From a virus: a stretch of 49,882 bases of DNA. The stretch covers positions 1 to 49,882 of the IMG/VR virus record IMGVR_UViG_3300017605_000543, one strand, 5' to 3'. Position numbers and translations under genes: made by a program. Shown piece by piece: positions 4,509-49,882 of this stretch; within the stretch, counting starts at the first letter, position 1; every line of letters starts with the position of its first letter. The notes under the pieces were generated by a model. The model saw only the letters and a program-made list of their open reading frames with translations, was not told the origin of the DNA and made no database searches.

Positions 4509-5723
4509 TTAGCCCCGTTCGGCTTTCTTCCCGGTTACAGCTTGCCAGCGTTCGATGATCACATCGCAGTATGCAGGCGAGATCTCGAGCGCCACGCACG
4601 TGCGGTCTAGTTGCTCCGCGGCGATCAGCGTGGTGCCGGATCCGCAAAACGGATCGTACACGACATCGCCTGACATCCCGTGATTGCGTATCGGCCTGGC
4701 CATGCACTCGAGCGGCTTTTGCGCTGAGTGCGTGGTTTCTTCGTTGGTATCGGTCGGACGATTCGAGATTTCCCACACCGTCGATTGCGTACGGTCGCCC
4801 GCCCAGCGCGCGGACGTGCCCTCACGCACGGCGTAAAAGCATGGCTCGTGCTGCCAGTGGTAGTGCCCACGGCCTGGCACCAGCCGGCCTTTCTTCCATA
4901 TGATTTGCGTACGCACACGCAGCGACGCCGATCCCAAGTCAACCTGTACACCCGCGCCGTTCGTGCCGCCGTGCCACACGTAAGCGACCGCACCCGTAAA
5001 CAGTTTGTATGCTTCAGGCCACGAACTGCGATCGTCGTTTTCAATCTTGCCCGTTCGCTCGCGCGTTACACCCTTGGGATTCATCCCGGATGCCTTTCGC
5101 CATGCGGCGTCGTACTGCACGCCATACGGCGGATCAGTCACCATGATAAAAGGCTCTAGCTTCGCCCTGGCCAGCGCCACGTGCTTCGCGTCCGTAGCAT
5201 CGCCACACACCAGCCGATGCCGACCGAGCAGCCACAGATCGCCCGCCTGCGTGACGGGCTCGGTGGGCGGCGTGGGCGCATCGTCGTCTGCGAGCTCCGT
5301 ACTCGAGCGAATCAGCCGCTCCATTTCTCGCAGGTCTTTGTCAACCCAACCCGCAAGCATCTGATCGCCCAGATCGTACGACCGCAGCAGTTCATGCAGC
5401 TCCGGCGTATCCCACTCTGCGAGCTCACCTAACCGATTGTCTGCGAGGGCCAGCAGGTGCGCTTCCCTCTCGGACAAATCCACGAAACGCACCGGCACAC
5501 GTTCCAACTTCAAAGACTGCGCAGCTTTCCAGCGCGTATGGCCCGCGATGATTTCGCGCGTGGCCAACCTGGCCACGATCGGCGCCGCGAAGCCGAACCG
5601 CTTGATCGATTCGGCGACCTTGACCACCGGTTCGCCATCGTTTTTGCGCGGGTTTTTGGCCCACGGTCGCAGCGATGCGATGTCTACCCATTCGGCGGCC
5701 GGAGCTGTGTTGTTCTCAGTCAT
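4509..5723 (-). CDS. ParB/Sulfiredoxin-fold domain fused to a DNA methyltransferase
   Basis: The start is ATG at 5723, in an ATGA overlap with the upstream nuclease-like gene. The 404-aa product has an N-terminal ParB-like domain (SLRPWAKNPRKND; IIAGHTRWKAA at 59-68; LADNRL at 93-98) and a C-terminal amino-methyltransferase with DPPY at 197-200 and DPFCGSGTT at 357-365. The DPPY-before-FxGxG order is the beta-type permutation, so it should methylate adenine N6 or cytosine N4. Such ParB-methyltransferase fusions are common orphan phage methylases. Coupling to an adjacent nuclease-like gene also allows a restriction-modification-like pair. Confidence 0.9.
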   Translation of the reverse strand: MTENNTAPAAEWVDIASLRPWAKNPRKNDGEPVVKVAESIKRFGFAAPIVARLATREIIAGHTRWKAAQSLKLERVPVRFVDLSEREAHLLALADNRLGELAEWDTPELHELLRSYDLGDQMLAGWVDKDLREMERLIRSSTELADDDAPTPPTEPVTQAGDLWLLGRHRLVCGDATDAKHVALARAKLEPFIMVTDPPYGVQYDAAWRKASGMNPKGVTRERTGKIENDDRSSWPEAYKLFTGAVAYVWHGGTNGAGVQVDLGSASLRVRTQIIWKKGRLVPGRGHYHWQHEPCFYAVREGTSARWAGDRTQSTVWEISNRPTDTNEETTHSAQKPLECMARPIRNHGMSGDVVYDPFCGSGTTLIAAEQLDRTCVALEISPAYCDVIIERWQAVTGKKAERG

Positions 5724-6349
5724 GTCAGCCCCTGCTCTGCTTTCCATGTCTCGAATCGTTCGCCGATTTGTATGTATTCGATGTCTGCATTTCGCAGCGA
5801 ATTGACGGCGGCAGCGTGCAACCGTTGCGGAGTCACCAGCACCGAACGAAGCACCTTTTTGCGCTCGCCCTGCATCTTCTCTAGCGTTTGCCTATACAAA
5901 CGAAGCTGCCGAATAACCTCACCAATGCTGGAAACGCTCGATTTCACTTCCACAAGGATTCGCGGCAGGTGCCAACTGTCGCTGATCCATACGACTTCCG
6001 GCGGACCTTCGCATTCTCGGATTTCGACAAGCTCAGCAACCAATCGATCCCTTTCAATGCCGTTCCATCCAACATCGCGCGGATACCGAAAGTACCTAAA
6101 AGATTCTTCGACTCTAATCAAAAGGTCTACAAATCCGACCTTGAAACCCCTCTCGCCACTCAAGAGATATTCCATCTCGGTTTGAGCGTGGCGATAGCAA
6201 ACGCCCGGAGTTTCCCCCGTGACCCGCCGCACAAATTCCTCTGCGTGCGCTTCGATGTACTGGCAGATATAGTCATGCTCCCGCGTGAACCGATCTAGGT
6301 CGCGAACGTCAAGCCGCGACGCCAGCGTGTTGCCGTGCGCGTGGCTCAT
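5720..6349 (-). CDS. PD-(D/E)XK-like nuclease, probable
   Basis: The 209-aa product has the acidic/lysine arrangement of a PD-(D/E)XK fold: E60 in TEMEYLL, D75 in GFVDLLIRV, E134 and K136 in RILVEVKSS, then a helix IGEVIRQLRLYRQ with Q148, followed by SVLVTP. No family name is recognised. The stop overlaps the start of the ParB-methyltransferase by ATGA, so the two should be translationally coupled. The domain could be a restriction-type or repair nuclease, or a degenerate DNA-binding version. The sequence is less GC-rich than its neighbours, which would fit transfer. Confidence 0.65.
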   Translation of the reverse strand: MSHAHGNTLASRLDVRDLDRFTREHDYICQYIEAHAEEFVRRVTGETPGVCYRHAQTEMEYLLSGERGFKVGFVDLLIRVEESFRYFRYPRDVGWNGIERDRLVAELVEIRECEGPPEVVWISDSWHLPRILVEVKSSVSSIGEVIRQLRLYRQTLEKMQGERKKVLRSVLVTPQRLHAAAVNSLRNADIEYIQIGERFETWKAEQGLT

Positions 6350-16721: not shown

Positions 16722-16777
16722 GCGGCCGTGTGTTCGGTGGGATCGCCCTCTACACCGACACACGGCCGCATTTTTTT
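16722..16777 (+). terminator. Strong rho-independent terminator after the SSB-like gene
   Basis: Positions 16722-16739 pair with 16753-16769 in a 17-bp GC-rich stem with one bulged T, followed directly by seven T residues (16771-16777). It separates the recombination operon from the RecD2 genes. The ATG of the next gene lies 23 bp past the T run. Confidence 0.92.
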
Positions 16778-16799
16778 GGACCGCACCCACGGACCGCCC

Positions 16800-17717
16800 A
16801 TGCAAACCACGCCACAAGACACGCTACGCGGCGAACTGCAGTCCTTTTCGCCCAAGACGCCTGATGGTTGGGGCGTGGGCTTATTGATCCTCGAGGCCAA
16901 CAAGCGGGCCACCGTGACGGGGCGTTTCGTCGGCTGCTCGATAGGCGATGCGCTCGAGTGCACCGGCCAGTGGCAAGATACGTCCTACGGCCGGCAGTTC
17001 CGTGTCACGGCCTGCACCACGACGGAACCACAGTCGGCTGATGCGGTGTGCGCCTGGCTCGTGCGCGCGCTGCCTGACATCGGCATGGCACGCGCGCGCG
17101 ACATCGTGGCGCGGTACGGGCACGGCGCCCAGTTGTGGGCCACGCTCGAGCACTCGCCCGGTTCGCTCACCGACATCGCAGGCATCACCGCACCGCGCGC
17201 GGAGCGCATCGGCGCCGCGTACCGTGAGCAGCAAGCCGATCGCGCCGCACTGGTGACTCTGTACGGGTGGGGCTTGACGTACACGCAGATCGGCCGCTGC
17301 GTCGCTGAGTACCAAACGCTAACGGGCACCATCGCAGCCATCCGCGCAGACCCATACCAGCTGATCGACACCATCCACGGCGTGGGCTTCAAACGCGCGG
17401 ATGCTTTGGCGCTGCGCATCGGGCTCGCCACCGACAGCCCGCACCGCATCATGGCGGCGATCCGTTACGTGCTCTACGACTCCGCCCAGATGCACGGGCA
17501 TTGCTTCCTGCCTTCGGGCGCGCTGGTGCGCATGACTGCGGCTCTGTTGGGCCTGCCGGGCTCCGCAGTGGCGCCGATGCTCGGGCGTGCTGGCGTGGTG
17601 CTCCGCGACGACCGCGCGTATCTGCGGCACCTGCACCGCGCCGAAACGGACGCCGCCCGCACGCTGCTGCAGCTGTGTGCACGGGCCCGCAACTGGCAAG
17701 CGGGGGTGGCGTCGTGA
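16800..17717 (+). CDS. RecD2-type helicase, N-terminal part (OB and HhH domains)
   Basis: The ATG at 16800 gives 305 aa. The N-terminal 100 residues resemble the RecD2 OB-like domain (SPKTPDGWGVGLLILEAN, ALECTGQWQDTSYGRQF). Two helix-hairpin-helix elements follow (LTDIAGITAPRAERIGAAY near 138-156; LIDTIHGVGFKRADALALR near 190-208). This is the N-terminal half of a normal RecD2 of about 720 aa. It stops at 17717 and the ATPase half continues as a separate gene overlapping by GTGA, with the repeat array at the junction. Confidence 0.88.
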   Translation: MQTTPQDTLRGELQSFSPKTPDGWGVGLLILEANKRATVTGRFVGCSIGDALECTGQWQDTSYGRQFRVTACTTTEPQSADAVCAWLVRALPDIGMARARDIVARYGHGAQLWATLEHSPGSLTDIAGITAPRAERIGAAYREQQADRAALVTLYGWGLTYTQIGRCVAEYQTLTGTIAAIRADPYQLIDTIHGVGFKRADALALRIGLATDSPHRIMAAIRYVLYDSAQMHGHCFLPSGALVRMTAALLGLPGSAVAPMLGRAGVVLRDDRAYLRHLHRAETDAARTLLQLCARARNWQAGVAS

Positions 17718-18973
17718 GCACCAGTGCTCATGAGCTCATGAGCACCGGAGCTCATGAGCGGGCTCGCGTGGTGCTCGATCCCACGCAACGCCGGGCCGTG
17801 GAGCTTGTGTGCTCCGCACCGGTCGGCATCGTGACCGGCGGGCCCGGTACGGGTAAGTCAACGTGCTTGGAGCAAGCCGTCGATCAACTCGAGCGCTCGC
17901 ACCGCACGTACGCGCTAGCGTCACCCACCGGCAAGGCGGCCAAGCGGCTCGCAGAAGCCACCAAGCGCGACGCCTGCACGCTGCACCGGTTGCTAGAATA
18001 CTCGCCGCGGCTGGGCGGCTTTGGGCGCAACGCCGATGAACCGCTCGATCAAGACGTCGTGATCGTCGATGAATCGTCGATGCTGGACATAGAGCTGATG
18101 GCCGCACTGTGCGCTGCCATCGACACGCGGCGCACGCGGCTGATCTTGGTCGGTGATGCCGATCAGCTGCCACCGGTGGGCGCCGGCCAGCCTTTCGCAG
18201 ACATGGTGCGGGCCGGTATCGTGCCGGTGGTGCGGCTCGGTACGCTGCACCGCTCTGCGGCCGATTCGTGGATTCATACCGCCGCCCAGTGCATGTTGCG
18301 CGGTCACGGTTTTTCGCTGGACGCGATGCATGACTTTCGGTTCGCTGAGTGCACCGATCCGGCGTGGATACTTCCCAAGGTCCGGCGGCTGTGTTTGGAA
18401 GCCTTCCCACGCGGTGGGCCACGTGGCGAAGCGCAAGTCTTGATCCCGCAGCGGCCGGGCGTCGCAGGCGTCGATGCGGCCAACGTGCAGCTGCAAGCCG
18501 CGCTGAATCCACCGCCGCCCACGGCTGCGGGCCACCGTGACCCAACCCCGGGCGACCTGCGTGCAGGCGACCGCGTGATCCAAACCAAAAACAACTACGA
18601 TCTAGGCGTCTACAATGGCGAAGTCGGCCGCGTGCTGTCCGTAGACGCCGCCACCGGTGCGGCCGTTGTCGAGTATCCCGATCACGGCGCACTGGCGTAC
18701 ACGGGCGCGCAAGCGGCCGCGCTACAGCTGGCATACGCGCTCACGGTGCACAAAACACAGGGCTCAGAATACCCGTGGACAATCGTCGTGTGCCATTCGA
18801 CGCACACATACATGCTGTCGCGGCAGTTGCTCTACACCGCGATCACGCGCGCCAAAGCCGGCGTGGTGCTTGTCGGTGATCGTAAGGGTATTGATAGGGC
18901 CGTGCGCAATCGGCAGCCTGCCGTGCGGCACACATCACTGCTAGACCGCATTCGCGATGGCGACGTGGTGTAA
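17714..18973 (+). CDS. RecD2-type helicase, C-terminal ATPase part
   Basis: The GTG at 17714 starts a 419-aa superfamily-1B helicase coupled to the N-terminal gene by GTGA. Motifs in order are DPTQRRAVE (Q-like), GGPGTGKST (Walker A, 42-50), ASPTGKAAKRL, VIVDESSM (116-123), LVGDADQLPPVG (145-156), YALTVHKTQGSEYP and LYTAITRAK, so the motor is complete. The first 15 residues (STSAHELMSTGAHE) are encoded by palindromic repeat array A. It should form a working 5'-3' helicase with the upstream product, perhaps for end processing or repair. Confidence 0.9.
   Translation: MSTSAHELMSTGAHERARVVLDPTQRRAVELVCSAPVGIVTGGPGTGKSTCLEQAVDQLERSHRTYALASPTGKAAKRLAEATKRDACTLHRLLEYSPRLGGFGRNADEPLDQDVVIVDESSMLDIELMAALCAAIDTRRTRLILVGDADQLPPVGAGQPFADMVRAGIVPVVRLGTLHRSAADSWIHTAAQCMLRGHGFSLDAMHDFRFAECTDPAWILPKVRRLCLEAFPRGGPRGEAQVLIPQRPGVAGVDAANVQLQAALNPPPPTAAGHRDPTPGDLRAGDRVIQTKNNYDLGVYNGEVGRVLSVDAATGAAVVEYPDHGALAYTGAQAAALQLAYALTVHKTQGSEYPWTIVVCHSTHTYMLSRQLLYTAITRAKAGVVLVGDRKGIDRAVRNRQPAVRHTSLLDRIRDGDVV
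17716..17759. repeat. Palindromic array A (three CTCATGAG units) at the RecD2 gene junction
   Basis: The array consists of overlapping GCTCATGAGC palindromes and ACCGG/ACCAG-type spacers. It is translated in frame as the N-terminus of the ATPase half and supplies the GTGA coupling site. It is one of six loci of the same repeat family. Confidence 0.9.
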
Positions 18974-19252: not shown

Positions 19253-19354
19253 GAGCTCATGAGCTCATGAGCACCGGTGCTCCGGTGCACTGGAGCTCAT
19301 GAGCAAACCCGCACACTTAGCTCATGAGCTCATGAGCTCATGAGCACCGGAGCT
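19253..19354. repeat. Palindromic array B (six CTCATGAG units) upstream of parA
   Basis: Two blocks, 19253-19304 and 19320-19354, carry three CTCATGAG units each plus an ACCGGTGCTCCGGTGCACTGG-like palindromic spacer in the first block. The second block ends 62 bp before the parA start. Upstream placement next to a ParA/RHH operon is typical of partition centromeres of small type Ib systems. This is the best candidate parS locus in the window. Confidence 0.9.
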
Positions 19355-19380
19355 TGTGACGCGCGTGCGTTTTTGCTATC

Positions 19381-19417
19381 TGATGTGTCAGGGCGACTCA
19401 TCAAGGGCGACACATCA
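19381..19417 (+). promoter_or_regulatory. Inverted repeat overlapping the parA start
   Basis: TGATGTGTC (19381-19389) and GACACATCA (19409-19417) are perfect 9-bp arms separated by 19 bases. The right arm ends at the A of the parA ATG, so protein binding or an RNA hairpin here would directly affect parA expression. Autoregulation by the partition proteins is likely but not shown. Confidence 0.6.
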
Positions 19418-20190
19418 TGGCAGCAACGGCGGCGACAGGCGCGGTGTACGCGGTCACGAATCAGAAAGGCGGGTCGTGCAAGACGACGACCGCGATCAAC
19501 TTGGCGGCCGAGTACGCCGCACGCGGCAAGCGCGTACTGCTGATCGATCTAGACCCGCAGGGCAACGCCGGCACGTCGCTGGGCGCACCGCCCACCGATG
19601 GCGCGCAGCTGGTGGCGGCGATCGTCGATGGCGCCACCATGCCGATCATCGACACGGCGGCCGGGGTGTCGCTGGTGCAGTCCGGGCGGGCGCTGGCCAA
19701 GATCGATCGGCTGCTCGCAGGCGAGCCCGGTGCGGAGACGCTACTGCGGCACGCCCTGCGACGCCTGCCAGGCCGGTGGGATCTGGTGCTGCTCGATTGC
19801 CCGCCCACGCTGGGCCTGATGTCACACCTGGCCCTCACGGCAGCGCAGAGCGTGATCGTGCCGGTCTACACGGAAGCGGCGCCGCTGGAAGGTGTCGCAA
19901 CGCTGCTGGATACGCTCGCCAGCGTGCGTGAGCGACTCAACCCGCAATTGACGATCGCCGCCGTGGTGGCATCGCGAACAACTAACACGCGGCTGTCGCG
20001 CGACGTCGAAGCCGCTCTGCGTGACCGGTTTGGTGCGGCGATGTGCAAGACAGTGATCCGGCAGAACGTGAAGATCTCGGAATCGTATTCTCACGGTGCT
20101 CCGATCCGCGTGTACGCACCGGACAGCGCCGGGGCGCAGGATTTCGCGGCACTCGCAGCAGAGCTCATCCGACGCAAGGCGGTGCACTGA
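19417..20190 (+). CDS. parA: ParA partition ATPase
   Basis: The 257-aa Walker-type ATPase has the deviant Walker A NQKGGSCKTTT (near 14-24) with the signature lysine, the A' motif LLIDLDPQGNAGTS (45-58) and Walker B LVLLDCPPTLGLM (near 122-134). It lacks an N-terminal HTH arm, as in type Ib ParA or Soj-like proteins. ParA drives segregation of low-copy replicons by gradients on the nucleoid. It is followed by a ribbon-helix-helix partner overlapping by TGATG, which makes a partition operon. In a phage this implies maintenance as a plasmid. Confidence 0.93.
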   Translation: MAATAATGAVYAVTNQKGGSCKTTTAINLAAEYAARGKRVLLIDLDPQGNAGTSLGAPPTDGAQLVAAIVDGATMPIIDTAAGVSLVQSGRALAKIDRLLAGEPGAETLLRHALRRLPGRWDLVLLDCPPTLGLMSHLALTAAQSVIVPVYTEAAPLEGVATLLDTLASVRERLNPQLTIAAVVASRTTNTRLSRDVEAALRDRFGAAMCKTVIRQNVKISESYSHGAPIRVYAPDSAGAQDFAALAAELIRRKAVH

Positions 20191-20576
20191 TGGCCGCCGC
20201 ACGACCGCCACGGGCGTCCGTACTCGGGCGCGACATGTTCGATCGCGTGGGCGTGGGCGCCGCGACGCCAGCCAACACCACGCCCACGGCCGCCGCGCGC
20301 CCAGCGCCCAACCCGAACGCCGCCAAGACGACACCCGCAGAGCGGCGGGTCGGCACAATCACGGCGCCCTACCAGCGCGCAGACGGCCAGCAAACCCGGC
20401 AGGTGTCCTGCACCCTGCCGATCGATCTGGTGATGCGCCTGGAGCTCGCAGCGACACGCCGGCAGGTTCGAGTGCGGGATCTGATCGTCGAGATGATCGA
20501 GCAGCACTACCCGGCGGCGCCGGGCGACGTGCCGGCCGCACCGCCGGCACCCAAGCGCGGCAAGACCACCAAATGA
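20190..20576 (+). CDS. Ribbon-helix-helix partner of ParA (candidate centromere-binding protein)
   Basis: The 128-aa product overlaps parA by TGATG. Its N-terminal half is disordered and Ala/Pro/Thr-rich, a typical place for the ParA-stimulating arm. Residues about 65-110 (TRQVSCTLPIDLVMRLELAATRRQVRVRDLIVEMIEQHY) form a beta-strand and two helices as in ribbon-helix-helix proteins such as ParG or Omega. It is the likely ParB-equivalent that binds the centromere and represses the operon. The candidate sites are the upstream array B and the same array elsewhere. Confidence 0.75.
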   Translation: MAAARPPRASVLGRDMFDRVGVGAATPANTTPTAAARPAPNPNAAKTTPAERRVGTITAPYQRADGQQTRQVSCTLPIDLVMRLELAATRRQVRVRDLIVEMIEQHYPAAPGDVPAAPPAPKRGKTTK

Positions 20577-34768: not shown

Positions 34769-34850
34769 GCTCATGAGCTCATGAGCACCGGTGCACCGGA
34801 GCTCATGAGCACGGGTGCACCGGTGCACCGGAGCTCATGAGCTCATGAGC
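34769..34850. repeat. Palindromic array C (five CTCATGAG units) between sheath and tube genes
   Basis: GCTCATGAGC units are arranged 2+1+2 with ACCGGTGCACCGG-like spacers that are themselves palindromic. The array fills almost the whole 104-bp gap, starting 2 bp from the sheath stop and ending 20 bp before the tube ATG. Confidence 0.9.
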
Positions 34851-37887: not shown

Positions 37888-37937
37888 TGCTCATGAGCTC
37901 ATGAGCACCGGAGCTCATGAGCACCGGTGCACCGGAG
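37888..37937. repeat. Palindromic array D (three CTCATGAG units)
   Basis: Two overlapping GCTCATGAGC units and one more are separated by ACCGG, followed by an ACCGGTGCACCGG palindrome. It lies just upstream of the small gene at 37873 and provides in-frame ATG codons (MST, MSS) for it. Confidence 0.9.
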
Positions 37938-41700: not shown

Positions 41701-41716
41701 GCGCTGGCCGTCAAGT

Positions 41717-41822
41717 GCTCATGAGCTCATGAGCACCGGAGCTCATGAGCACCGGAGCTCATGAGCACCGGTGCTCCGGTGCACTGGAGCTCATGAGCTC
41801 ATGAGCACCGGAGCTCATGAGC
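41717..41822. repeat. Palindromic array E (seven CTCATGAG units), the longest
   Basis: Seven CTCATGAG units with ACCGG spacers and one ACCGGTGCTCCGGTGCACTGG block occupy the entire gap between the MuF-like and DUF2213 genes. The MuF-like gene uses a TGA inside the last palindrome as its stop. Confidence 0.92.
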
Positions 41823-43290: not shown

Positions 43291-43676
43291 TGCGAGCGCT
43301 CCACGGTCACGCCACGCGCACGCAGCACTGGCTCGATCTCACGCAGGATCGTGGCACACGCAGTGCGCATGCGGGCCTGGCCCGGCGTGAGCTGCAACCA
43401 TGGGCGCTCGAGCACCACGCAGCGGGCCACCGGTGCGGCGTGCGGCTGTGCCTGCAGTGCTTTGCGTAGCGCCCTCACCACGCCCACACCTTCGTAAATC
43501 GTCGGGCCCTGCGGCGTGAGCATGAGCGACGCCAGCACATCCGACGCACCCGACCACCCAAGCCCGATCAGATCATCGGCGTGCACCACGGCCAGCGACG
43601 GATCATCCGCCGCCATGCGCTGCGCTAGCGTGGTTTTGCCGGCACGGGGCGAGCCGATGATCGCGATGCAGGTCAC
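43287..43676 (-). CDS. Small P-loop NTPase in the head operon
   Basis: The GTG at 43676 overlaps the previous stop by GTGA. The 129-aa product begins TCIAIIGSPRAGKTTLAQRM, with Walker A GSPRAGKTT (8-16), then VVHADDLIGLGWS (Walker B-like) and CVVLERPWLQL. It resembles small kinases of the adenylate kinase/zeta-toxin-like superfamily but lacks a recognised lid. A P-loop kinase between two virion genes is unusual. It may be a nucleotide or peptide kinase, or a cargo factor. Confidence 0.75.
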   Translation of the reverse strand: MTCIAIIGSPRAGKTTLAQRMAADDPSLAVVHADDLIGLGWSGASDVLASLMLTPQGPTIYEGVGVVRALRKALQAQPHAAPVARCVVLERPWLQLTPGQARMRTACATILREIEPVLRARGVTVERSQ

Positions 43677-45493
43677 GTCGCTTTCTTGCGTTTAGCGGAG
43701 CCGCCGATCGGCCCAAATCCACGCGGCAGCCGCGACATCCCGGGCCCTGCTCGCCGCGCGACTTCCGCATGCAAGAAGAAACGCTCATCGCTCAGACGTA
43801 CGTGTTCGGCTCGCAAGGTTTGGTGCCCTGGATTGTTGAGCCCTGCCGGTGCTTCCCTACGGCCCATGTGAATATCGGCCGTCTCGTGCGCCGTCTCGTG
43901 ACCTAACCCCGCGGCGATCATCTTGCTGGAATTCGCCGATTGCTTTGCGCTTGCACGCTCGATCTGCTTGTTGATTTGCGCAGCAGACTTTTGGCTGTGA
44001 TCGTGCTTCATGCGTTCGCGTGCACGCTCTGAATCGCGCGACGCCTGGAATGATGCTTGCTCTTTTGCCTTGGCTGCTGCTGCGTGTTCGGCTGTCGCGT
44101 GCTCTTGCGCGGCTTGCTTGTCGGCTTTCTGCTTTGCTTCATGTGCCGCGTTTTCGGCTTCGACTTTGCGCGCGGCAGCTTCACCACGCCGTTTCAAACC
44201 CTGTCGGTGCGGCGTGTTTACCTGATTGTATTCGTTGACGCCGCCGTGAGCGGCTGCAGCTTCATGCAGGTGGCCACGCTCCCGCGTTAGTGCGGCATGC
44301 TCATCTGCCAGCTTTCGCGGGCCCATGCTGATCGGAAGCGTTGCAAACCGCGCCAAGGCTTGCTCGGGCGTTTCATGCATCCCGCTGGACGTTCCAATCC
44401 GGAAGTTTAGATCGCTTAGTTTCTTGGCGTTGCGCTCGAGTGCCGTATCGAGTTGCGCCGGTTTCTTGCCTAGATGCGGATTCTCGCCCGCTTCTAGCGC
44501 TCTGTTTTTTGCGGCTTTGGCAAGGTCTGCAGCGCGGCGCTGGGCGCCTTGCTCTTTCCACTGCGCTGCCAGCGATCCCGGTGCTGGTGCTGCGGCGGCC
44601 GGTGCGGCGGCCGGCGTTCTGCCAGTCATACGAGCAATCAGCGCGCCCGCTGTCTTTCCTCGCTCGGTCACTGCCGCGACTTCCGCATTAGACTTGCCGT
44701 GCTCTGCAAAATGCTTGGCATCTTCGGCTGCGATCGTGGCTTTCGCTTTCGCAACGCGCTCCGCGGCTTTTTCTTGGATGTGATTGGGGTGCCCCATGCC
44801 GACCAGATCACGCCGCTTTTGCGTCTTTCTGAAATGCTCGGCTTCCGCAGTCGCGCGCGTGTGCAGGTCGGTAGCGTCGGCAAGCTCTTTCGTCGCGGCC
44901 GCATGCGCCGGAGACTTATTGAACCGTGCGGCGTTCGCTACGCGTTCGGCATGCTCGCCGCCGTGGGCGGCCGGTGCTGCCGCAGGCGCCGCAGCCGATG
45001 GCGGCACAGTGCGGCCGGTGCGTGCCTTGCGCGCCTTGTGCTCTGCTAGGGCGATTTCGCCCTTGGCGTGCACCATCGCCTTGTTTTTGATGCCTTGAAC
45101 GGCTTTCGTGCCGCTTGCACCTTGGAATACCTTGTTGACGGTGTAACCGCCCTCGGGCGCGGATTTCTTCGGGGCTCGCTTGAATAGCAGCGTTTGCTGG
45201 GCGCGCTCTTTCGCGGCTGCGGAGCGCGCCGCACGCTTTTCGCGCGACTGCTGCAAGTACGCAGCGGCTTTCGCCATCTTCTGCTCGGGTGTCAGGCGCA
45301 CCGCCGGACCACTGCGGCCGCCTGTGCCGCCGCTGGTGAACCGACCGCCGCCTGACTGGCCCTTGGGTATGCGGGCCTGCTCATCTAGCCGCTCACGCTC
45401 CCGCATGCGGTACTTGAGCAGAGCTGCATGCCCTGCGTCGTGATGCGACCTGGCTACGGTGTGAGCGGCGGCGATGCGGGCGGCAGCAGACAT
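43673..45493 (-). CDS. Large Ala/Lys-rich head-region protein with duplicated motif
   Basis: I chose ATG at 45493 (606 aa); a TTG at 45529 is also open. The N-terminus has IPKGQSGGGRFTSGGTGG, a motif that often opens MuF-associated virion proteins. The rest is low-complexity Ala/Lys/Glu coil. Two related segments are present: near 365-425 of the longer reading (LSDLNFRIGTSSGMHETPEQ, LADEHAALTRERGHLH) and near 520-592 (IAAGLGHETAHETADIHMGR, LRAEHVRLSDERFFLH). The operon position suggests a capsid-internal or ejected protein. Confidence 0.75.
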   Translation of the reverse strand: MSAAARIAAAHTVARSHHDAGHAALLKYRMRERERLDEQARIPKGQSGGGRFTSGGTGGRSGPAVRLTPEQKMAKAAAYLQQSREKRAARSAAAKERAQQTLLFKRAPKKSAPEGGYTVNKVFQGASGTKAVQGIKNKAMVHAKGEIALAEHKARKARTGRTVPPSAAAPAAAPAAHGGEHAERVANAARFNKSPAHAAATKELADATDLHTRATAEAEHFRKTQKRRDLVGMGHPNHIQEKAAERVAKAKATIAAEDAKHFAEHGKSNAEVAAVTERGKTAGALIARMTGRTPAAAPAAAAPAPGSLAAQWKEQGAQRRAADLAKAAKNRALEAGENPHLGKKPAQLDTALERNAKKLSDLNFRIGTSSGMHETPEQALARFATLPISMGPRKLADEHAALTRERGHLHEAAAAHGGVNEYNQVNTPHRQGLKRRGEAAARKVEAENAAHEAKQKADKQAAQEHATAEHAAAAKAKEQASFQASRDSERARERMKHDHSQKSAAQINKQIERASAKQSANSSKMIAAGLGHETAHETADIHMGRREAPAGLNNPGHQTLRAEHVRLSDERFFLHAEVARRAGPGMSRLPRGFGPIGGSAKRKKAT

Positions 45494-45533
45494 GCAAGCG
45501 TTATCGGCTGCGACACCCACAGCCGTCAACGGT

Positions 45534-45602
45534 GCTCATGAGCTCATGAGCTCCGGTGCACGGGTGCTCATGAGCTCATGAGCACCGGAGCTCATGAGCT
45601 CG
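45534..45602. repeat. Palindromic array F (five CTCATGAG units)
   Basis: Units are arranged 2+2+1 with CTCCGGTGCACGGGTG and ACCGG spacers, between the terminator at 45609 and the start of the structural operon. It therefore lies in or near the promoter/leader of the capsid-tail transcript. Confidence 0.92.
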
Positions 45603-45963: not shown

Positions 45964-46239
45964 ATGAGCAGTACACGCCCCAAAGCACCACGCGCACCCA
46001 GAATCCGCGCGCTACTCGCCGCCGGCCTGGCGCCCACTGAGATCCGCGCTTCGACAGGCGCGAGTCTGCAGGCCGTGCGCGATGCCGACCTGGCACGCAA
46101 GCCACGCGGCCGGCCGCCTGCCGGCATGCAGCGCATCACGCTGCATGTCAGCGCCGCAACGGCGGCGTGGTTACGCGCGGAATCGAAACGGTGCGGCTGC
46201 ACGCTGGGCGATGTCGTCGAAAGTGAGATCGGCCGCTGA
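45964..46239 (+). CDS. Small DNA-binding protein (HTH arm plus ribbon-helix-helix), probable
   Basis: The 91-aa product has a basic start and an HTH-like segment (IRALLAAGLAPTEIRASTGA, then SLQAVRDADLAR), followed by RPPAGMQRITLHVSAATAAWLRAESKRCGCTLGDVVESEI, which matches a ribbon-helix-helix fold. It is the first gene of the plus-strand cassette, downstream of two perfect palindromes, so autoregulation is plausible. Confidence 0.65.
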   Translation: MSSTRPKAPRAPRIRALLAAGLAPTEIRASTGASLQAVRDADLARKPRGRPPAGMQRITLHVSAATAAWLRAESKRCGCTLGDVVESEIGR

Positions 46240-48536: not shown

Positions 48537-49882
48537 TCACAGTTGTTGCAGATGCGCTTCGAGCAAGCCCGCATGCACGTCACGCAGCCGTGCGCGCGCA
48601 TCGCGGTCGAAGCCACGCACCACCGCCCGCCGCTCTTTCGGTGGCAGGCGTGGGTGCCCAGTCATGAGCGCATCGGTGTTGGAATCGGCACCGCCCAAAA
48701 GATCATCGTCCACGGCATCAGCCGCCCGGCGGAATGCCGCGCGCGCTTCGCGCTTGGTGGTCGGCAGTGGCCCGCCGGCTTGGAGCTCCCGCACCATGTA
48801 CGTACGGATCACGCTGTCCGATGTCGCCGCAGCGTGCAGTGCGCCGCCGGCTGCGACGAAATCCGCGCGCGTGCCGTGCTGCCGGTGCGCCTGCATGATC
48901 TGCGACTCGAGCCGCCAAATATCCCGCACCACGGGCGACTGCTCGCCGCGTGCGGCGGCGTCCAGGTGCGTGCCCCGGTGTGACTTGAGCTCGGTGTGTA
49001 GGTCCTTGAGCAGCGCGGCGCCGCGTGCGGGATTGGCCACGTGGCCTGCACGGCGCCGCTCATCCCGCAGGCGGTCACTGGCCGCACGCAGCGCCGCCGC
49101 AGTGGCTGGCGTGGGCGCTGCCTTGTGTGCATGGGCGGCATCGCGTAACGCCTGCCGGTGGGGCTCGAGCAGCGCCGCGCGTTCGTCTTTCGAGCGAAAC
49201 GCGCGCGTGCCCCGGCGGTCTGTCTGAGTAACGCCCTGCGGCTGTTCATACTGGCGCGCCAAACGCCGCCGGGTTGCTCGAAGCTTATCTGCAGTGCGCC
49301 CTAAAGCCGCCGCAGTGGCAGCCGTGGGCGTCGAAGCGTGGGCGGCACGCGCGCTGGCGTACGCCGCCCGGTGCGGCTTCAAGACTTTTGCGCGCACAGC
49401 CGCCGCTTGCTGTGCGCGCACACGCCTAGACACATCGCCCACAGCCCGCCCGGTGGATGTCCAGCGCCCTACGGGATCGCGTGGCTGTGCTTCCGACCAC
49501 GCATCACCGCGTGCTTTCGGTGGCGCATCGTCGTCGGGCTCTGTGCCACCGCCGCCATCAGCTGCCAGCGGATCAGGCGGGTTGATCAGCGACTCTGCGT
49601 ACACGTCCAGTTGCTTATCGCGGAGTGCTTCACGCTCTGCGACGTCGATTACCGGGAAATCAGGCGCCAGGCCGATCGCAGCTTCTGTCTCCGTGATTAT
49701 CTGCGCGCCTACCAAAGCCACATAGGTGTCGGCTTTGACTTTCTTGGTGTCTGCGCATTCCTTGTCGGTTTCTTGCCAAAGCGGGTTGAATTTGACGTCC
49801 CACCGCTCCGGCACGACGCCGCGTGTGGGCCCGTCTTTCGCCAGGCAAAGCAGCGTGATCAGCCGATGCAGCCGCGGTTTCA
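48537..49882 (-). CDS. Portal protein, C-terminal part (about 434 codons to the stop); begins at 1191
   Basis: This continues the portal from base 1 (codon K at 49838; bases 49839-49882 repeat 1-44). The family-typical core ends near VKFNPLWQETDKECADTKKV and ALVGAQIITETEAAIGLAP. It is followed by an acidic linker, a PRDPVGRWTSTGR motif and a helical Ala/Arg-rich tail. The tail holds two related segments (LKPHRAAYASARAAHASTPT... and LEPHRQALRDAAHAHKAAPT...) of about 45 residues each, a duplication. The tail adds some 300 residues beyond a normal DUF1073 portal and may line the capsid interior. Confidence 0.88.
   Translation of the reverse strand, partial: KPRLHRLITLLCLAKDGPTRGVVPERWDVKFNPLWQETDKECADTKKVKADTYVALVGAQIITETEAAIGLAPDFPVIDVAEREALRDKQLDVYAESLINPPDPLAADGGGGTEPDDDAPPKARGDAWSEAQPRDPVGRWTSTGRAVGDVSRRVRAQQAAAVRAKVLKPHRAAYASARAAHASTPTAATAAALGRTADKLRATRRRLARQYEQPQGVTQTDRRGTRAFRSKDERAALLEPHRQALRDAAHAHKAAPTPATAAALRAASDRLRDERRRAGHVANPARGAALLKDLHTELKSHRGTHLDAAARGEQSPVVRDIWRLESQIMQAHRQHGTRADFVAAGGALHAAATSDSVIRTYMVRELQAGGPLPTTKREARAAFRRAADAVDDDLLGGADSNTDALMTGHPRLPPKERRAVVRGFDRDARARLRDVHAGLLEAHLQQL
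49839..49882. repeat. Terminal direct repeat, right copy (contig overlap)
   Basis: This copy is identical to bases 1-44. Joining the copies restores the portal frame, so the true molecule has about 49,838 bp. Confidence 0.95.

What the first reader, a model, noticed from the sequence alone, without database searches (positions are those of the whole stretch)
19253..19354. Dispersed palindromic arrays as candidate multi-site centromere of a phage-plasmid
Arrays of CTCATGAG/GCTCATGAGC with ACCGG-type spacers occur at six loci: 17716-17759, 19253-19354, 34769-34850, 37888-37937, 41717-41822 and 45534-45602. By eye I count 3, 6, 5, 3, 7 and 5 units, 29 in all. One locus lies 62 bp upstream of parA, and the operon encodes an RHH protein, the usual centromere binder of type Ib systems. 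In prophage-plasmid N15, centromere repeats are dispersed among late genes. The hypothesis is that the RHH protein binds all six arrays to partition the phage-plasmid and perhaps silence structural genes.
Basis: partly seen in the sequence, partly recalled or inferred. Interest (0 to 1): 0.88.

Follow-up and report, generated by a model that had tools for sequence, protein, structure and literature searches.

The report
Scattered partition-protein landing arrays in phage
This virus carries six short DNA ladders, one beside its DNA-partition genes and most of the others among its particle-building genes; they are very probably landing strips for its own partition protein, so one protein could both share out virus DNA at cell division and influence late virus genes.

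Summary
All 29 copies of CTCATGAG in the window lie in the six named arrays (0.6 expected by chance). Each array is a strict 8-bp ladder: the invariant part is the hexamer GWGCWC (51 copies) with a 2-bp spacer (mostly AT or CG). The window has a 44-bp terminal repeat, so it is a complete genome of about 49.8 kb. A relative with about 82% identical DNA (G002) has all six arrays at the same sites with changed unit content. A more distant relative (G006, ParA 60%, ribbon-helix-helix (RHH) protein 45% identical) has one diverged 8-bp ladder, just upstream of its par operon, and none at the tail-gene site it still covers. The par-linked array therefore looks ancestral and the scattered ones acquired. 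Phage RedRock, whose ParB binds 8-bp repeat parS sites (published), shows the same ladders but only at par. A second, unrelated family of ~100-kb phages also pairs ParA/RHH with scattered 8-bp ladders (13 of 13 contigs tested). Best reading: the RHH protein binds all six arrays as dispersed parS sites and probably also regulates neighbouring genes. Binding, partition and the direction of regulation are untested. New variant of a known kind.

The parts
17716..17759 (.). Array 1: 8-bp ladder, 5 hexamer units, at the junction between the two halves of a split recD2-like helicase gene
   Evidence: helicase halves by Pfam and PDB match
19253..19358 (.). Array 2 (par-proximal, putative main parS and operator): two sub-arrays (6 + 4 octamers) separated by a phase slip, ending 62-64 bp before parA
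   Evidence: orthologous array in G002; diverged ladder upstream of par in G006
34770..34849 (.). Array 3: 10 octamers between the tail sheath gene and the next late gene (tail-tube position), just upstream of the latter's start
   Evidence: absent at this junction in G006, L200, L201, L202
37887..37937 (.). Array 4: 6 octamers, roughly 20 bp upstream of the probable start of a small late gene
41715..41821 (.). Array 5: 13 octamers between the minor head protein gene and the head maturation protease gene
   Evidence: 9 octamers at the same site in G002
45527..45602 (.). Array 6: 9 octamers upstream of the late gene 43673-45529
19417..20190 (+). parA: Walker ATPase of 257 aa without an N-terminal DNA-binding extension (type Ib size)
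   Evidence: Pfam AAA_31 1.4e-41; PHROG 164 ParA-like 7.6e-52
20190..20576 (+). Putative centromere-binding protein (ParB analogue), 128 aa: low-confidence N-terminal part, C-terminal strand-helix-helix (residues 69-77, 78-91, 95-106)
   Evidence: AlphaFold model, block pLDDT 65-78 in the core; weak match to the BrnA antitoxin family (E 0.054); alignment A2 with invariant RQ-S-T-LP strand

Best explanation
The six arrays are binding sites (parS) for the RHH protein encoded directly downstream of parA. Dimers bind the GWGCWC core side by side at 8-bp pitch and coat each array; the par-proximal array is the ancestral centromere and operator of the parA-RHH operon, and the five others give a non-spreading RHH protein more points of attachment for ParA. 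Because most scattered arrays lie immediately upstream of late genes, the bound protein probably also affects their expression in an extrachromosomal prophage. Shown here: array anatomy, conservation of site with change of content, linkage with ParA/RHH, and the same pattern in an unrelated phage family. Inferred: binding, partition, regulation.
For: Exact ladder far beyond chance. Complete genome with 44-bp terminal repeat; no tyrosine or serine integrase domain found, consistent with a non-integrated prophage. Six of six arrays conserved at orthologous sites in G002 while unit number or order differs in most. In G006 the strongest 8-bp periodicity of the contig lies just upstream of the par operon, with GTGC/GCAC (a GWGCWC-type core) at 21 per 200 bp against a mean of 3.4. 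Strand residues Q71, S73 and T75, expected to face DNA, are invariant across the three proteins. RedRock, analysed the same way, gives exactly two strong ladders, both flanking parAB, matching its published parS-L and parS-R, eight 8-bp repeats each (PMC7157519). pSM19035 has six parS sites of 7-10 heptads at promoters and needs at least four contiguous repeats (PMC9499535); every array here has at least four contiguous octamers. Independent family: 13 of 13 tested contigs with its RHH protein have TTCATNNN ladders (most with many), against 1 of 15 others (a single hit); a 93-kb relative without detectable ParA and one with a diverged RHH have none.
Against: No binding data. Only two near-complete genomes of the window's own kind are known; the other array-bearing contigs are 4-8 kb fragments that do not show par. 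The RHH model is of moderate confidence and no solved structure matches significantly. The G006 ladder is degenerate. Regulation is inferred only from position.
Confidence: 0.77

Rival explanations
1. The arrays are operators of a dedicated late-gene regulator or lysogeny repressor (like the stoperators of cluster A mycobacteriophages), with no role in partition; the array near parA is just one operator among six.
For: Four of six arrays lie in the late region, close upstream of late genes. In the independent family many arrays end 3-16 bp before gene starts.
Against: The only ladder shared with G006 is the par-linked one. The other RHH-like protein (45964-46239) is absent from G002, which keeps all six arrays. 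Co-occurrence with the RHH protein next to parA in a second family.
Confidence: 0.13
2. The arrays act as RNA: tandem palindromes form long hairpins in late transcripts and work as terminators, RNase III sites or translation controls.
For: Five array regions folded as RNA are much more stable than shuffles (z -4.2 to -9.6).
Against: Tandem palindromic units fold whatever their function. The diverged G006 ladder folds only modestly better than shuffles (z about -2.6) and the ladders of the second family not notably (z 1.3 to -1.1); none of the late-region arrays is listed as a terminator-like site.
Confidence: 0.06
3. The arrays are dispersed mobile or recombinogenic palindromic repeats without a specific protein partner.
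For: Unit number and order change between orthologous arrays; scattered arrays are absent from outgroups at the sites covered.
Against: Strict 8-bp register, invariant core in 85 of 85 junctions, same sites in two genomes about 18% diverged, and a diverged ladder next to par in G006.
Confidence: 0.04

Closest known systems
parABS of mycobacteriophage RedRock (extrachromosomal prophage)
   Same: Small ParA plus a small ParB that by sequence reads as RHH (own reading), parS made of 8-bp direct repeats, carried by a phage (PMC7157519; arrays re-found).
   Different: Two arrays only, both flanking parAB; here six, spread over the genome. Repeat sequence unrelated (CGAGTNNT-type against GWGCWC).
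pSM19035 delta/omega type Ib system
   Same: RHH centromere-binding protein; six parS arrays of contiguous short repeats that overlap promoters, also of a gene other than par (PMC9499535).
   Different: 7-bp non-palindromic heptads, on a plasmid, controlling plasmid genes; here an 8-bp pitch with a palindromic core, next to phage late genes.
ParF/ParG-parH of plasmid TP228 (type Ib)
   Same: RHH protein with a flexible N-terminal tail coating an array of short boxes with spacers and binding an operator upstream of its operon (PMC7308502).
   Different: Degenerate boxes with AT-rich spacers at a locus beside the operon; no scattered copies described there.
Phage-plasmid N15 sop system
   Same: Four centromere sites IR1-4 in a prophage-plasmid (PMC7205306); a paper title links Sop to late gene expression (reference in PMC11652158). 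That the sites are scattered in the genome is from own knowledge.
   Different: Type Ia with a helix-turn-helix SopB that can spread; single inverted repeats, not ladders; linear prophage.
Stoperators of cluster A mycobacteriophages
   Same: Short regulator sites dispersed over a phage genome (own knowledge).
   Different: Single asymmetric sites for the immunity repressor, not 8-bp ladders, not linked to par (own knowledge).

Membership tests
Type Ib ParABS partition system | Small Walker-type ParA without N-terminal DNA-binding domain | tested here: met
   257 aa, AAA_31 from residue 10, PHROG 164 ParA-like
Type Ib ParABS partition system | RHH centromere-binding protein encoded downstream in the same operon | tested here: inconclusive
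   Gene starts at the parA stop; strand-helix-helix predicted with moderate confidence; no curated family or solved structure match above cut-off
Type Ib ParABS partition system | Array of short repeats upstream of the operon | tested here: met
   10 octamers at 19256-19352, parA at 19417
Type Ib ParABS partition system | At least four contiguous repeats per functional array (pSM19035 criterion) | tested here: met
   Runs of 5, 6+4, 10, 6, 13 and 9 octamers against the criterion in PMC9499535
Type Ib ParABS partition system | Centromere-binding protein binds the array and the locus stabilises a replicon | not testable with these tools
   Needs purified protein and a plasmid stability assay
Phage-plasmid | Phage structural genes plus plasmid partition genes in one complete replicon | tested here: met
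   Terminase, major head, sheath, baseplate with parA; 44-bp terminal repeat
Phage-plasmid | No integrase | tested here: met
   No PF00589 or PF00239 match in the window
Phage-plasmid | Extrachromosomal replication as prophage | not testable with these tools
   No host or lysogen known
N15-type dispersed centromere | Several centromere sites away from par, among phage genes | tested here: inconclusive
   Five further arrays at such sites, but that they act as centromeres is untested
N15-type dispersed centromere | Type Ia ParA with HTH SopB | tested here: not met
   Short ParA and small strand-helix-helix partner
Cluster A stoperators | Single asymmetric sites spread over the genome | tested here: not met
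   Sites are multi-unit ladders with a palindromic core

The most novel reading that the evidence does not exclude
Non-spreading RHH partition proteins of phage-plasmids have repeatedly evolved genome-wide sets of parS ladders beside phage genes, so that the segregation protein doubles as a global regulator of the lytic programme; segregation and late-gene control would be one system in at least two unrelated phage families.
Probability: 0.4. Interest if true: 0.8.

Novelty: new variant of a known kind. Interest (0 to 1): 0.62.

Why it matters
RHH-type ParB proteins are reported not to spread beyond their sites, and how a system with so few bound dimers fits the ParA diffusion-ratchet model is described as unclear (PMC9499535). 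Genome-wide arrays would be a natural answer, and their position beside late genes would join partition to the choice between plasmid-like and lytic life, as hinted for the unrelated N15 system. The pattern is simple to score (8-bp ladders plus a RHH gene next to parA), so it can be used to recognise phage-plasmids and their centromeres in metagenomes.

Tried and rejected
Second RHH-like protein (45964-46239) as the binder: absent from G002, which keeps the arrays. RNA hairpin or terminator function: strong folding in the window but not in the other families. Modification-site explanation: GWGCWC is over-represented outside the arrays too (134 against about 68 expected from base composition), but so are some control palindromes, and this does not explain an 8-bp pitch. 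Single GCTCATGAGCACCGG matches in 47 other viral loci: one match each; five of these loci hold at least two CTCATGAG and none at least three, so no arrays. Genome-collection search with ParA: nearest 44%, no host found. No RHH relatives in plasmid records. Fold search with the RHH model: no match at E 0.001; a few proteins known to me as RHH (VapB, YiiF, Arc, CdbA) appear among the non-significant matches. Profile comparison of the two RHH families aligns the same domain, but weakly (probability 7%). Literature searches for dispersed RHH centromeres in phages found no direct report.

Full report
Observation. The window is a virus record of 49,882 bases whose first and last 44 bases are identical; the relative G002 aligns to it as a circular permutation, so the genome is complete. 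Laid out in steps of eight, each array is a continuous ladder of octamers: CTCATGAG, CACCGGTG, and hybrids such as CACCGGAG and CTCCGGTG; the par-proximal array has one phase slip. In the window and G002 together all 85 junctions between octamers read GWGCWC, while the two bases between hexamers vary, mostly AT or CG. The ladder is therefore best read as GWGCWC plus a 2-bp spacer. Neither pitch 7 nor pitch 9 gives any run.

Surroundings. Array 2 lies between a small leftward reading frame and parA. The operon encodes a 257-aa ParA and a 128-aa protein with a low-confidence N-terminal part and a C-terminal strand-helix-helix predicted at moderate confidence, the usual make-up of type Ib centromere-binding proteins (reviewed in PMC5016525). 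Array 1 lies at the junction of two reading frames that together make a RecD2-like helicase. Arrays 3-6 lie in the leftward late region: between tail sheath and the next gene (tube position), before a small gene, between minor head protein and head protease, and before a gene of unknown function. The ends of arrays 3-5 are roughly 20 bp from the probable start codons. No integrase domain was found.

Relatives. G002 (48.2 kb, about 82% nucleotide identity over most of the genome) has the same six arrays at orthologous places; two have identical unit order and the others differ in number or order of units. Four short contigs of the same kind also carry arrays with flanks like those of the late-gene sites. 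G006 (25.9 kb) is syntenic but more distant: ParA 60%, RHH protein 45%. It has no CTCATGAG ladder; its strongest 8-bp periodicity lies just upstream of the par operon, where GTGC/GCAC reach 21 per 200 bp against a mean of 3.4. At the sheath-tube junction, where the window has array 3, G006, L200, L201 and L202 have none, and L202 shows no array between its minor head and protease genes, the position of array 5. The simplest history is an ancestral par-linked ladder and later spread of arrays in the window's lineage. The strand residues expected to face DNA (Q71, S73, T75) are invariant in the three proteins while the residues between them vary, which fits the shared GTGCAC-type core; this is suggestive, with only three sequences.

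Positive control. The same periodicity scan on phage RedRock, whose ParB binds two parS loci of eight 8-bp repeats each (PMC7157519), gave exactly two strong ladders, both flanking parAB. RedRock has none elsewhere in the 50 kb scanned.

Independent family. Among the ParA relatives found in viral contigs was a family of contigs up to 106 kb with ParA only about 30% identical to the window's. One member (G018) encodes a head maturation protease, a tail protein and a reverse transcriptase by PHROGs. Their RHH protein is a different one. A pattern search with TTCATNNN at 8-bp pitch found ladders in all 13 tested contigs with that RHH protein, and in one of 15 other ParA contigs (a single hit). 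In G018, G037 and G028 there are 13, 8 and 8 arrays, almost all between genes and many 3-16 bp before a gene start; scrambled cores give none there. A 93-kb relative by terminase without detectable ParA (G038) has none, and G030, with a related ParA but a diverged RHH protein, has none of this sequence. G040, a 62.6-kb fragment without ParA in the part held, has four; as a fragment it cannot decide. I take this family as independent support that such ladders go with RHH partition proteins.

Mechanism. The best-supported reading is that the RHH protein binds all six arrays. RHH-type ParB is reported not to spread beyond its sites; pSM19035 needs at least four contiguous repeats to activate ParA and has six parS arrays at promoters (PMC9499535). 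Every array here has four or more contiguous units. Scattered arrays would load more RHH protein per genome and place it beside late genes. Whether that silences or helps late genes cannot be told from sequence; for the unrelated N15 system a paper title speaks of facilitation (reference in PMC11652158). An older N15 partition paper that I tried to read was not held.

Rivals. A separate late-gene repressor is less likely because the ladder shared with G006 is the par-linked one and the other RHH-like protein is missing from G002. RNA hairpins are very stable in the window, but the diverged ladder of G006 is only modestly so and those of the second family are not. Inert repeats do not fit the strict register and conserved sites.

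Verdict. Observation confirmed; interpretation partly supported. The finding combines known elements, type Ib parS ladders and dispersed centromere sites, in a combination I did not find described in the papers searched, a library that lacks most subscription journals. Interest 0.62.

Noticed in passing
1-44 and 49839-49882: Exact 44-bp direct terminal repeat; the record looks like a complete circular or circularly permuted genome.
   Followed up: yes
16728-18973: RecD2-like helicase split into two overlapping reading frames (OB/HHH part and motor part) with array 1 at the junction; array at the same site in G002; no counterpart of this region seen in G006.
   Followed up: partly
45964-46239: Small protein with a second RHH-like C-terminal segment, present in the window but not in G002 or the G006 fragment.
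   Followed up: partly
4509-5747: Fusion of a ParB N-terminal-like domain with a DNA methyltransferase domain.
   Followed up: no
19417-20190: ParA P-loop reads KGGSCKT, with cysteine in place of the last glycine of the usual KGGxGKT; same in G002 and G006.
   Followed up: no
L204-L209 (G018), L210-L214 (G037), L215-L219 (G028): Family of ~90-106-kb phage contigs with ParA, a different RHH protein and 8-13 scattered TTCATNNN ladders, many 3-16 bp before gene starts; G018 also encodes a reverse transcriptase.
   Followed up: partly
L265-L269 (G030): Relative with ParA 61% identical to that of L022 but a diverged RHH protein; lacks TTCAT ladders and may have GTAC-type repeats near par (around 79.85 kb).
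   Followed up: partly
17716-45602, all arrays: The array core GWGCWC equals a known type II restriction recognition sequence (own knowledge, HgiAI/BsiHKAI type); probably coincidence.
   Followed up: partly
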